From Weeksellaceae bacterium (GTDB lineage: Bacteria > Bacteroidota > Bacteroidia > Flavobacteriales > Weeksellaceae), in the NCBI GenBank assembly GCA_022013695.1, contig JAKLPS010000027.1:60716-124715 (forward strand): a stretch of DNA of 64,000 bases, read 5' to 3'. The translations under genes and the position numbers were made by a program. Positions 8,438 through 47,600 of the stretch are shown here, piece by piece. The notes under the pieces are model-generated. The model ran no database searches. It saw only the letters and a list, made by a program, of their open reading frames with translations, and was not told where the DNA came from. Numbering within the stretch: position 1 is the stretch's first letter; the number at the start of each line of letters is the position of its first letter.

Positions 8438-10327
8438 TTACTTCAAACTCTCGAAACTACGCTTGATAAAGTCGGTCAGTTCCTTTCCTTTCAGTAGATT
8501 TTGAGATAATTTTGCGAGATCCAACGCCTGATTAATCATCGCTTTTTTCTTATCGGCATCCTCTATTTTCAGCAATTCTTCCGCAAATTCGGAATTGCAA
8601 TTGACGACGAGATTGTACATTTCGGGGAAACCGCCCATTGCAAACATTCCGCCGCCGCCTGTAGCCTGCATATCTTTCATTCTTCGAAAAAACTCCGGCT
8701 GAGTCAAGGTAAACGGCGCATCGGCAGAATCAAGATCTTCCAACTGAACAGTGAATTTCTCATCATTGACAGATTCCTCGATTTCTTTTTTCAATTTTTC
8801 CTTATCCGTTTCATTCAATTTAGAAATCACTGGCTCATCTTTTTTGATGAGATTATTGATGTGATCTGCATCCACTCTTGCAAAAGCAATCTTTTCTTTC
8901 GATGCCTCCATTTTTTGGATCAGATGCGGCACGATGGGAGAATCGAGCAATAGCACTTCATAGCCTTTCTCTTTCGCCGCCTCGATGTAGCTGTGTTGCT
9001 CATCGCTGTTGGACGCATATAGAACGACTGTTTTGCCGTCCTTATCGGTTTGGTTGGTTTTGATTTTGTCCATCAACTCGTCCCAAAGATAATACTGGCC
9101 ATCGGTTGTTGGATATAGTGCAAATTTGTCAGATTTGTCATAGAATTTATCCTCCGAAATCATCCCATATTCTATCACGACTTTGATATCGTTCCAATTT
9201 TTTTCGTAATCTTCACGGTTTTCGTTGAGGAGCGCTACCATCTTGTCGGCCACTTTTTTGGTGATGTAAGACGAGATTTTTTTCACCGCGGCATCAGCTT
9301 GTAGATAAGAACGCGAAACATTTAAAGGAATATCAGGAGAATCGATTACACCTCTCAGAAGCATCAAGAAATCCGGAACGATGCCTTTCACTTCATCGGT
9401 CACAAAGACCTGATTTTGATACAATTGGATCTTATCTTTCTCGATATTAATATTGTTTCCTAATTTTGGAAAGAACAAAATTCCGGTCAAATTAAACGGA
9501 TAATCCACATTCAAATGGATATGAAACAAAGGATCTTCAAACTGCATCGGATACAGCTCTCTGTAAAAGTTGTTGTAATCCTCCTCGGTCAGCTCAGAGG
9601 GCGCTTTCGTCCACGCCGGATTGGGATTGTTGATAATATTGTCCACCTCAACGGTTTCTGGTTTTGCATCTTTCGCAGCACCTTCCGGCAAAGGCAGTGT
9701 TTCTTTTCGGGTTCCGAATTTGATAGGAATTTGATTGAATTTATTATACTTCGTCAAAAGCTCACGAATCTTGTACTCTTCCAAAAATTCCAAAGAATCT
9801 TCTGCAATATGAAGCACGATTTCCGTTCCTCTGTCAGACTTTTCAGTTTCTTCAAGCGTATATTCCGGACTTCCGTCGCAAATCCACCGAACCGCTTTAC
9901 TATCTTCTTTGTAAGATTTGGTTAAGATTTCCACTTTCTCCGCCACCATAAACGCAGAATAAAATCCAAGACCAAAATGTCCGATAATTCCAGCATCTTT
10001 GGCAGAATCTTTATATTTTTCAAGAAATTCCTCTGCGCCAGAAAACGCCACTTGGTTGATGTATTTTTCAACTTCCTCGCCCGTCATTCCGATTCCTCGA
10101 TCCTTGATGGTCAGCGTTTTCGCCTCTTTATTAATTTCCACTTCGATGATCGGATTTCCGTAATCCACTTTCGCTTCACCAATCACGGTCAGATGTTTCA
10201 ACTTCGTGGTGGCATCTGTCGCGTTCGAGATCAATTCACGAAGAAAAATTTCGTGATCGCTGTAAAGAAACTTTTTGATCAGCGGAAAAATATTCTCCAC
10301 GGACACATTAATACTTCCTGTTGACAT
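8438..10327 (-). CDS. htpG: Molecular chaperone HtpG (Hsp90)
   Basis: A 629-residue bacterial Hsp90. The GHKL ATPase domain is intact: LISNATDA (ATP-Mg Asn), DRGIGM, GHFGLGFYSAF and GTEIVLHI within the first 180 residues. The middle domain follows, with the NVSRSYLQ catalytic-loop Arg region, then the C-terminal dimerisation domain. It is a homodimeric ATP-dependent chaperone in the cytosol. It is a single gene. Upstream lies a 477-base divergent gap holding the RNA-like repeat element. No heat-shock operator was seen. Confidence 0.97.
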   Translation of the reverse strand: MSTGSINVSVENIFPLIKKFLYSDHEIFLRELISNATDATTKLKHLTVIGEAKVDYGNPIIEVEINKEAKTLTIKDRGIGMTGEEVEKYINQVAFSGAEEFLEKYKDSAKDAGIIGHFGLGFYSAFMVAEKVEILTKSYKEDSKAVRWICDGSPEYTLEETEKSDRGTEIVLHIAEDSLEFLEEYKIRELLTKYNKFNQIPIKFGTRKETLPLPEGAAKDAKPETVEVDNIINNPNPAWTKAPSELTEEDYNNFYRELYPMQFEDPLFHIHLNVDYPFNLTGILFFPKLGNNINIEKDKIQLYQNQVFVTDEVKGIVPDFLMLLRGVIDSPDIPLNVSRSYLQADAAVKKISSYITKKVADKMVALLNENREDYEKNWNDIKVVIEYGMISEDKFYDKSDKFALYPTTDGQYYLWDELMDKIKTNQTDKDGKTVVLYASNSDEQHSYIEAAKEKGYEVLLLDSPIVPHLIQKMEASKEKIAFARVDADHINNLIKKDEPVISKLNETDKEKLKKEIEESVNDEKFTVQLEDLDSADAPFTLTQPEFFRRMKDMQATGGGGMFAMGGFPEMYNLVVNCNSEFAEELLKIEDADKKKAMINQALDLAKLSQNLLKGKELTDFIKRSFESLK

Positions 10328-10804
10328 ATTTATATTATTTTTTGTTTTATTTAATTTTCAATCCAGACATCAGAATCAATCTACTTTCTAACATCTAAAC
10401 GCTCACTTCTACTTGGGCGACTGCCAAAAGCCAAAACTTTCCCCACGCTATTTTGTCACCGGGCTATTCGCTACAATCTTTTGCTTATCACGTCTTGTCA
10501 TCAATCGGCGCATTTCACAAGCAAAAGGATTTCCACTACTATCCCTATCGCAGATTTCCACAGCCACTCCAGATTTCACAAAAAAAAGACCATTGAGATA
10601 ATAATGACAAATTGTCGCTTTGTATTTTATCTTTGCATTCATTGTTGAGTTTGAAGTTTATACTGAGCTTGACGAAGCGCCTTTGCGAACCTTAAAATAT
10701 TTTCAATATGGGAAAAAATCTTTGGTCCCTTTACGTTTAAAGCAAAATTACAATTTCACTTTATCAAAAATCCTTACATTTACTTTCCAGAACAAGAAAG
10801 CACT
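10328..10804. other. Intergenic region htpG / methylmalonyl-CoA mutase
   Basis: A 477-base divergent gap with no convincing gene. The small ORFs at 10413-10642 overlie the RNA-like repeat described separately. Bases about 10655-10705 contain a GAGCTTGACGAAGCGC stretch resembling short dispersed sequences common in intergenic DNA. The last 60 bases, rich in A and T, presumably carry the mutase promoter, but no full TAnnTTTG box is present. Confidence 0.6.
10445..10560 (-). repeat. RNA-like hairpin repeat element, copy A
   Basis: Read on the minus strand, this holds GTAGTGGAAATCCTTTT, then the stem CTTTTGCTT, a 32-base loop, the matching AAGCAAAAG, then ATTGTAGCGAATAGCCC. The first block (17 bases) is identical to copy B at 47.48 kb. 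There the stem has a different sequence but still pairs fully, as expected of a conserved RNA or DNA hairpin. The 64-residue ORF over it (10448-10642) has no protein-like features. Intergenic sequence of this pattern recurs in flavobacterial genomes as I remember them; I cannot give it a family name. Confidence 0.55.
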
Positions 10805-12922
10805 ATGCGTCACCAAATACAAAATCAAAACCCTGATTTTAAGAATATTACATTCGATTCCCATTCAGAAAACTATATTTTTGAAAAAGACGGTTTGGAA
10901 CTGAAATCAAAATACACCAGCGAAGATGTAAAAAATAAAGACATCCAGGCCGGCTCGGCAGGCATTGCCCCTTTTCTTCGCGGCCCCTACTCCACAATGT
11001 ACGTCCAAAAACCTTGGACTATTCGGCAATATGCTGGATTTTCAACCGCAGAAGAATCGAATGCCTTTTACCGAAGAAATTTGGAAGCAGGCCAAAAAGG
11101 GCTTTCCGTGGCTTTCGATCTCGCAACGCACCGCGGTTACGATTCTGATCATCCAAGAGTCGTTGGCGACGTTGGAAAAGCAGGCGTTGCAATAGATTCG
11201 GTTGAGGATATGAAGATTTTGTTTAACGAGATTCCCTTGGATCAAATCTCCGTTTCGATGACGATGAACGGCGCAGTTTTACCCATTTTGGCCTTTTACA
11301 TCGTGGCTGCAGAAGAGCAAGGCGTTTCTATGGACAAGCTCTCCGGAACCATTCAAAATGATATTCTCAAAGAATTTATGGTTCGTAATACTTACATCTA
11401 TCCGCCCACACCATCGATGAAAATTATAGCCGATATTTTTGAATATACTTCTAAAAATATCCCGAAGTTCAACTCCATTTCCATCTCAGGCTATCATATG
11501 CAGGAAGCTGGCGCAACACCGGTGCTGGAAATGGCCTACACTTTAGCCGACGGTTTGGAATATGTGCGAACAGGAATAAAGGCCGGAATGAACATTGATG
11601 ATTTTGCGCCAAGATTGTCCTTTTTCTGGGCCATCGGAATGAATCATTTTATGGAAATCGCCAAAATGCGCGCCGCCAGATATATTTGGGCCAATCTTCT
11701 CCAACAATTCAATCCTCAGAATCAAAAATCTCTCGCTCTCAGAACGCATTCGCAAACTTCTGGATGGAGCTTGACGGAGCAGGAACCTTTTAATAATATC
11801 ACAAGAACCACCATCGAAGCATTGTCGGCCGCATTGGGAGGCACGCAATCGCTGCACACCAATGCTTTGGACGAGGCTATCGCTTTGCCAACCGATTATT
11901 CGGCGAAAATTGCCAGAAATACGCAGATCATTCTTCAGCAAGAAAGCGGAATCTGCGACGTTGTCGATCCAATGGGTGGAAGTCATTTGATAGAATCGTT
12001 GACTCAGCAAATGATTGAGGAAGCTACCAAATTCATCGATGAAGTGGAACAAGAAGGCGGAATGACCAAAGCCATCGAAGCCGGAATCCCGAAAATGAGA
12101 ATCGAAGAAGCATCGGCCATCAAACAGGCCAAAATCGACAGCGGAGAAGAATTTATCATTGGTATAAATTCTTTTAAATCTCATCTGCAGCAGTCCGAAA
12201 TCGAAATCCTAGACATCGATAATACAGAAGTCCGCAGAAAACAAATCGAAAGACTGAACAAAATAAAATCGGAACGAAATGCCGAATCGGTAACAGAAAT
12301 TCTGAGTCAAATCCGAGAAACCGCTAAAACAGGAAAAGGAAATCTGTTGGAATTATGCATCGAAGCGGCTCGCCGAAGAGCAACGCTTGGCGAAATAAGC
12401 GATGCTATGGAAGCGAGTTTCGGACGTTACAAAGCCAATATCAAAACCATATCAGGTGTTTACGCTATGAATGCAGGAAAAAACGAATACTTCGACAAAG
12501 CCGTTGCCTTGAGCCAAAAGTTTGAAGATCAGAACGGCAGACGACCCAGAATTATGGTCGCCAAGATGGGACAGGACGGCCACGACCGAGGCGCAAAAGT
12601 CGTAGCAACCGCCTTTGCAGATATGGGATTTGATGTGGATGTTGCGCCGCTCTTCCAAACGCCGGAAGAAGTGGCGAAGCAGGCTGTGGAAAATGACATT
12701 CACATTCTAGGTATTTCTTCTTTGGCTGCCGGTCACAAAACGCTGGTACCGCAAGTGGTGGAAGAACTGAAAAAATTAGGCGCCGACGACATCACAATCG
12801 TCGTTGGCGGCGTGATTCCCAAGCAGGATTACGAGTTTTTATATGCCAACGGTGCCGACTTTATCTTCGGCCCTGGAACGAATTTGCCAAAGAGCGCTTT
12901 TGAAATTTTGGAAAAGCTTTAA
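10805..12922 (+). CDS. Methylmalonyl-CoA mutase large subunit
   Basis: A 705-residue adenosylcobalamin enzyme converting methylmalonyl-CoA and succinyl-CoA. Residues about 50-540 form the TIM barrel ([34 protein letters not shown]). Residues about 575-705 form the B12-binding domain with [10 protein letters not shown], whose His is the lower cobalt ligand. The length fits the catalytic subunit (MutB/ScpA type). No small subunit gene is adjacent, although in many Bacteroidota the two are neighbours; the partner must be elsewhere or absent. The maturation GTPase meaB lies about 14 kb away on the other strand. Confidence 0.95.
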
Positions 12923-47349: not shown

Positions 47350-47469
47350 ATGAAATTGCGGGAAGCGTGAAGATGGGTTTTGATAGTTTTTTCTACGTTT
47401 TTCTCTCGTTATATTGTGAATCCTCGATTTTTTTTTGAAGTTTTCTTTTCGAAGTCGAAAACGTTACTA

Positions 47470-47600
47470 GCCCTGATGGTAGTGGAAATCCTTTTTTGCC
47501 TTGTTTGTCCCGTGTCATCTTGGCAAAGCGTGTGGCAAAAAAGATTGACTACGTCGAACCACTTCGTTAGGTTTGCAACGGACAGCAGGTTCCCGGCTCC
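47470..47600 (+). repeat. RNA-like hairpin repeat element, copy B
   Basis: It begins CCCTGATGGTAGTGGAAATCC, shares a 17-base block with copy A, and has a perfect 10-bp stem CTTTTTTGCC / GGCAAAAAAG around a 33-base loop, then AAGATTG and later GGACAGCAGGTTCCCGGCTCC. Compared with copy A the stem sequence changed on both sides so that pairing is kept. Between ATTG and the GGACAGCAGG end there are about 30 bases (ACGTCGAACCACTTCG...) without an equivalent in copy A, perhaps a secondary insertion. Confidence 0.6.

What the first reader, a model, noticed from the sequence alone, without database searches (positions are those of the whole stretch)
10445..10560. RNA-like hairpin element, copy A, with compensated stem changes against copy B
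On the minus strand GTAGTGGAAATCCTTTT and the following AAAGATTG are shared with copy B at 47.5 kb. The stem differs in sequence (CTTTTGCTT/AAGCAAAAG here, CTTTTTTGCC/GGCAAAAAAG there), yet pairing is complete in both and loop lengths are 32 and 33. Paired changes are the usual mark of a selected hairpin. Both copies sit between divergent gene starts, so they are not 3' tails of genes. From memory, sequences of this pattern recur through flavobacterial genomes and are often mis-annotated as tiny ORFs; I know no function.
Basis: partly seen in the sequence, partly recalled or inferred. Interest (0 to 1): 0.65.

Follow-up and report, generated by a model that had tools for sequence, protein, structure and literature searches.

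The report
Dispersed Flavo-1 hairpin, two copies
The hairpin is one of about 55 copies in this genome of a known but unexplained flavobacterial element, Flavo-1; the copies are scattered between genes, their paired arms are held by selection at each site, and they look more like a structured DNA site (or a passively transcribed RNA) than like the small-RNA gene they are filed as.

Summary
Copy A (10460-10546, minus) is Rfam Flavo-1 (RF01705; 50.0 bits, cut-off 42). Copy B (47465-47596, plus) is the same element, broken by a 28-nt insert (38.1 bits). The genome holds about 55 copies and genus relatives 44 to 123, so this is a known family of unknown function, not a new one. New here: (1) across 95 copies 96% of cells pair, with 259 two-sided against 11 one-sided changes, plus a perfectly linked non-Watson-Crick pair; (2) between this genome and its closest held relative the two 28-nt arms differ at 1.1%, loops at 6.2%, flanks at 6.6%, so single sites are under purifying selection; (3) sites are old (copy A at the same place in 18 of 23 genus genomes), yet another site carries different subtypes in different species; (4) no promoter is attached, orientation to genes is mixed, G.T pairs are rare (0.9% against 8.1% in tRNAs), and nothing was found in viruses, plasmids or beside Y1 transposases. 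Flavo-1 thus behaves as a self-contained, vertically kept chromosomal hairpin site. I favour action at the DNA level; an RNA element inside passing transcripts is the main rival. An independent small RNA and a RAYT-driven REP are disfavoured.

The parts
10460..10546 (-). Flavo-1 copy A, whole element
   Evidence: RF01705 match 10460-10545, 50.0 bits against a cut-off of 42, E 8.4e-8; own model R1 51.1 bits
10527..10546 (-). copy A 5' arm AGGGATAGTAGTGGAAATCC
   Evidence: sequence; arm columns of A6
10519..10527 (-). copy A terminal stem, 5' side CTTTTGCTT
   Evidence: paired in 17 of 17 orthologues at the modelled T/A pairs
10487..10518 (-). copy A loop, 32 nt, unconstrained
   Evidence: loops diverge at flank rate
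10478..10486 (-). copy A terminal stem, 3' side AAGCAAAAG
10460..10478 (-). copy A 3' arm GATTGTAGCGAATAGCCCG
47465..47596 (+). Flavo-1 copy B, whole element with insert
   Evidence: RF01705 38.1 bits, E 1.5e-4, under the cut-off of 42; R1 44.9 bits (locus L054)
47468..47491 (+). copy B 5' arm TAGCCCTGATGGTAGTGGAAATCC
47491..47500 (+). copy B terminal stem, 5' side CTTTTTTGCC
47501..47533 (+). copy B loop, 33 nt
47534..47543 (+). copy B terminal stem, 3' side GGCAAAAAAG
47543..47589 (+). copy B 3' arm, interrupted
   Evidence: same interruption in the closest relative G014 (L054/L137)
47548..47575 (+). 28-nt insert ACTACGTCGAACCACTTCGTTAGGTTTG inside the 3' arm of copy B
   Evidence: comparison with the uninterrupted arms of other copies
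8438..10327 (-). htpG, neighbour of copy A
   Evidence: NCBIfam NF003555, 644 bits
10805..12922 (+). methylmalonyl-CoA mutase, neighbour of copy A
   Evidence: NCBIfam NF006944, 1251 bits
46319..47326 (-). pyrD (quinone-dependent dihydroorotate dehydrogenase), neighbour of copy B
   Evidence: NCBIfam NF003652, 505 bits
47698..49239 (+). glycine--tRNA ligase, neighbour of copy B
   Evidence: NCBIfam NF003211, 660 bits

Best explanation
Both copies belong to Flavo-1, a self-contained imperfect hairpin made of two conserved arms of about 28 nt with purine-rich internal loops, closed by a T/A-rich stem and a free loop. SHOWN: about 55 copies in this genome, between genes, in both orientations; old, vertically inherited sites; arms conserved site by site between close species; different whole subtypes at one fixed site in different species. 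INFERRED: each copy is a site where the Flavo-1 strand folds, as extruded cruciform or single-stranded DNA, and is bound by a chromosomal protein, much as REP/BIME elements are used; copies also serve as templates for one another (gene conversion), which swaps subtypes without losing the site. The binding partner is unknown.
For: Family and copy number. Structure: 96.1% of cells paired, 259 two-sided changes against 79 in shuffles and at most 17 when slid; covariation score 0.451 against 0.141. Linked non-canonical change: 5' A with 3' G or 5' C with 3' A. Constraint at each site: arms 20/1789, loops 84/1349, flanks 416/6270 differences in 32 orthologous pairs; the 30 nt next to the arms are no better conserved than sequence further out. 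Old sites: copy A in 18 of 23 genomes, two changes on the tree; a second site occupied in 19 of 22 genomes, where the middle stem changes type four times and the x-y pair six times on the tree. No own promoter: TAnnTTTG within 120 nt upstream in 10/56 copies against 181/401 genes with a spacer. G.T pairs 10/1080 against 34/419 in tRNAs. Published transcriptome: sense, antisense and untranscribed hits alike. Orientation relative to neighbouring genes: -- 24, -+ 12, ++ 11, +- 6, unclear 3.
Against: No direct evidence for DNA binding or extrusion. G.A-rich internal loops also suit RNA. Scarce G.T pairs could reflect subtype swaps, which skip wobble intermediates, or strict RNA geometry; copies are related, so the counts are not independent. 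Predicted DNA folding energies are modest (-9.9 to -18.5 kcal/mol) and for some copies the minimum-energy fold departs from the consensus. No partner protein was found. Gene conversion is inferred from the pattern, not observed.
Confidence: 0.45

Rival explanations
1. Flavo-1 is a promoterless RNA structure that works inside passing transcripts: in untranslated regions when sense, and in antisense or read-through RNA otherwise, binding an RNA-binding protein or setting RNA stability.
For: Strand-specific purine-rich internal loops and linked non-canonical changes are typical of RNA; Rfam files it as RNA; several 5' transcribed regions of F. psychrophilum coincide with Flavo-1; consistent with constraint confined to the arms.
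Against: 24 of 56 copies are antisense to both neighbours and only 11 sense to both; many hits are not transcribed; G.T pairs are ten times rarer than in tRNAs.
Confidence: 0.32
2. Each copy is an independent small-RNA gene acting in trans, as the Rfam type 'Gene; sRNA' implies.
For: Rfam type; listed among abundant sRNA families in a review (PMC9029176).
Against: A promoter (TTG, 16-22 nt, TAnnTTTG) within 120 nt upstream in 0/56 own copies and 1/46 in G014; flanks of the arms unconstrained; 44 to 123 copies per genome; published transcriptome gives no such pattern.
Confidence: 0.07
3. Flavo-1 is a mobile hairpin element moved by a Y1 (RAYT/IS200-like) transposase, kept only by its own spread.
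For: Dispersed hairpin; patchy occurrence across families; subtype turnover at a fixed site.
Against: No Flavo-1 in 20 Y1 transposase loci; G005 and G017 hold at least 64 copies and no Y1 gene; the two Y1 genes of this genome have other palindromes at their sides; none found on plasmids or phages with one query, none in viral contigs with one exact pattern; sites are vertically inherited and arms are constrained at single sites, which idle copies would not show.
Confidence: 0.1
4. Flavo-1 is a (two-way) transcription terminator.
For: Hairpin with T and A tracts; many copies lie 10-80 nt behind a stop codon.
Against: Only 6 of 56 copies lie between convergent genes; the T tract is inside the stem, not after it, on either strand.
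Confidence: 0.03

Closest known systems
Flavo-1 RNA motif, Rfam RF01705 (Weinberg et al. 2010, PMC2864571)
   Same: Same conserved arms, same helices and internal loops; copy A scores above the curated cut-off; same taxonomic range.
   Different: Rfam's model has 76 positions with a short loop; copies here have loops up to about 80 nt. Rfam calls it a small-RNA gene; the evidence here speaks for a self-contained site without a promoter.
REP/BIME elements of enterobacteria and pseudomonads
   Same: Works alike: dozens to hundreds of intergenic imperfect palindromes at conserved sites; conversion between copies has been proposed for REPs (title of Higgins et al. 1988, seen in the reference list of PMC12306157).
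   Different: Longer, with conserved purine-rich internal loops and a free terminal loop; no RAYT link found. Not filed as a member.
STAXI motif (PMC2864571)
   Same: Motif for which the same authors discuss a single-stranded DNA function.
   Different: Pseudoknot repeats near DNA-processing genes; unrelated in sequence and structure.

Membership tests
Flavo-1 (RF01705) | Score at or above the curated gathering score | tested here: met
   Copy A 50.0 bits against 42. Copy B 38.1 bits, not met, explained by a 28-nt insert in its 3' arm.
Flavo-1 (RF01705) | Conserved arms, paired helices, internal loops | tested here: met
   95 copies, including copy A, aligned to one model, 96.1% of cells paired; copy B also matches the model, 44.9 bits.
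Small-RNA gene | Own promoter | tested here: not met
   0/56 full promoter matches; -7 box in 10/56 against 181/401 genes.
Small-RNA gene | Discrete transcript | not testable with these tools
   No RNA-seq here; the published transcriptome of a relative speaks against it as a general rule.
REP/RAYT system | RAYT (Y1) gene flanked by copies | tested here: not met
   No Flavo-1 at 20 Y1 loci; two rich genomes without Y1.
REP/RAYT system | Many intergenic palindromic copies | tested here: met
   About 55 copies; the few apparent overlaps with reading frames are at frame ends.
Mobile element in general | Precise empty site against filled site | tested here: inconclusive
   At the copy A site, absence in 5 genomes removes over 200 bp including linker sequence, not a precise element.
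Intrinsic terminator | Hairpin followed by a T tract | tested here: not met
   T tract lies inside the stem.

The most novel reading that the evidence does not exclude
Flavo-1 is not an RNA family: it is a chromosome-wide set of tens to over a hundred sequence-diverse DNA hairpin sites, each under selection, read by a structure-specific DNA-binding protein of the Flavobacteriales and renewed by conversion between copies.
Probability: 0.3. Interest if true: 0.72.

Novelty: already known. Interest (0 to 1): 0.42.

Why it matters
Flavo-1 is one of the more abundant annotated 'small RNAs' of Bacteroidota and has had no function since 2010. Showing that its arms are selected site by site, that it carries no promoter, and that subtypes replace one another at fixed sites turns a vague RNA annotation into a testable question: which protein reads this hairpin, and as DNA or RNA? 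If it is DNA, a sizeable Rfam entry should be re-typed and a chromosome-wide site class comes into view.

Tried and rejected
RAYT link: Y1 genes searched in the own genome and in 60 relatives, 20 loci scanned for Flavo-1, none found. Transfer on plasmids, phages or viruses: no match, but only one 90-nt query and one exact pattern were tried. Replication-strand rule: in complete genome G004 the strand of the copies falls into domains (p about 0.007-0.02), G023 p 0.027, G015 p 0.11 (for G015 and G023 only the best-scoring part of the copies was listed), but in the own genome there is no relation to local GC skew (20 of 49), so no claim is made. Antisense preference among tandem neighbours is weak (24 to 11, p 0.04). 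Terminator reading rejected by placement and by the T tract inside the stem. Homogenisation alone as the cause of arm conservation: rejected by argument, because 32 of 36 shared sites keep their own subtype while about three of every four to five expected arm changes are missing. First reading of the gene at 10805-12922 as a glutamine synthetase was wrong (my notebook entries say glnN); NCBIfam gives methylmalonyl-CoA mutase; the tree therefore rests on htpG and this mutase gene. Alignment A1 held one row on the wrong strand and was replaced by A2.

Full report
WHAT IT IS. The two hairpins are members of Rfam family RF01705, Flavo-1. Copy A matches at 10460-10545 on the minus strand with 50.0 bits (curated cut-off 42, E 8.4e-8); copy B matches at 47465-47596 on the plus strand with 38.1 bits (E 1.5e-4). 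Copy B falls short because a 28-nt insert (47548-47575) interrupts its 3' arm; the closest held relative has the same insert. The literature held here names Flavo-1 in few papers: the discovery paper, which scores it as a probable RNA, not cis-regulatory (PMC2864571); a review that lists it as an abundant sRNA of unknown role (PMC9029176); and a transcriptome of F. psychrophilum, which found hits indistinctly sense or antisense to transcribed regions and many outside them (PMC9723704).

HOW MANY AND WHERE. The own genome (2.61 Mb, 33 contigs) holds 43 copies over the cut-off and 55 at E below 1e-3. All 24 genus genomes examined hold 44 or more; two complete ones have 106 and 123. [quoted passage not shown] No match was found in plasmid or phage collections with one 90-nt query, nor in viral contigs with one exact pattern; these are limited tests. 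The copies lie between genes; relative to the Flavo-1 strand the neighbours are -- 24, -+ 12, ++ 11, +- 6, unclear 3 (gene calls by a simple open-frame rule).

STRUCTURE. On 31 own copies 96.6% of cells pair, with 78 two-sided changes against 25.5 in shuffles and at most 6 when the partner is slid. On 95 copies from several genomes the figures are 96.1%, 259, 79 and 17; that alignment was fitted to the model, so it leans towards the structure. One position shows T-A, A-T and G-C there, and C-G as well at the orthologous site below. Between the helices lie internal loops of the form GNA/GGA and GGA/GNA or GGC/ANA. The last base of the inner 5' triplet and the first of its partner change together (A with G, or C with A), a non-canonical covariation. 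G.T pairs make up 10 of 1080 standard pairs, against 34 of 419 in 20 tRNAs found in sampled stretches of the same genus.

EVOLUTION. Of the own copies, 38 could be paired by flanking sequence with copies of the closest held relative, G014, not all equally clean. In 36 pairs aligned, four carry a clearly different element; in the other 32 the arms differ at 20 of 1789 positions, loops at 84 of 1349 and flanks at about 416 of 6270. The 30 nt next to the arms are no better conserved than sequence further out, so constraint ends with the element. Copy A is present at the orthologous place in 18 of 23 genus genomes; absences need two events on a tree of the two neighbouring genes and remove over 200 bp, not a precise element. 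A second site (own contig C32, 34991) is occupied in 19 of 22 genomes in which its flank was found, decayed in two and absent in the rest; the element there is of the AAATCC type in some species and of the GCATCC type in others, four changes of type on the tree, with both sides of the helices changing together. In copy A's own orthologues the type is constant and single pairs change, some by way of G.T. Old sites with replaceable contents point to conversion between copies; this is an inference.

HOW IT MAY WORK. Constraint on arms at single sites argues for a function of each copy, not only for past spread. Nothing like a promoter goes with the copies: the full consensus is absent upstream of all 56, and the -7 box occurs in 10 of 56 against 181 of 401 genes with a spacer. 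About two fifths of copies are antisense to both neighbours. Together with scarce wobble pairs and the published transcriptome this makes a site read in DNA the best-supported single reading, at about 45%, with an RNA element inside passing transcripts next, at about 32%. Which protein would read it is unknown. A link to Y1 (RAYT) transposases was tested and not found.

VERDICT. A real, selected element; already a named family; function open. The finding itself is a rediscovery. What is worth a specialist's time is the conflict between 'sRNA' as filed and a promoterless, orientation-free, site-wise selected hairpin as found. Limits: gene calls are rough, the covariation tests use related sequences, E-values of the own model are approximate, and no expression or binding data could be used.

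Noticed in passing
window 10624-10756: A second dispersed repeat, about 105 bp and rich in TTTGCG-like words, lies next to copy A; dozens of similar stretches occur in the genus genomes, and it is missing at the matching place in G014.
   Followed up: partly
window 47548-47575; L261 and L268 around the Flavo-1 3' arm: Unrelated inserts of about 28 nt (one in copy B, another containing CCTTCGACAAGCTCAGGATAAACTA in two relatives) interrupt the 3' arm of Flavo-1 copies at nearly the same place, as if the arm were an insertion target.
   Followed up: partly
L075, L076, L078, L079, L085 (copy A orthologues): The terminal loop has been replaced by a TTCACTTCGTTCGGAATGACAAA-like repeat while the arms stay intact.
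   Followed up: no
L031 and L032 (own contigs C29 and C18): Two Y1 transposase genes of about 150-160 aa have their own short palindromes at their sides (CAGTCCGTAGGACTG, GATTCCGTAGGAATC; GGGCAAAGCCC), likely separate REP families.
   Followed up: no
window 10580-10620: The stretch CACAAAAAAAAGACCATC...AATGACAAATTGTCGCTT between copy A and the mutase gene is very well conserved in the genus, also where Flavo-1 is absent; perhaps a promoter or operator.
   Followed up: no
G004 contig 1: The strand of Flavo-1 copies falls into large domains that follow the sign of GC skew in this complete genome, but not in the own genome.
   Followed up: partly
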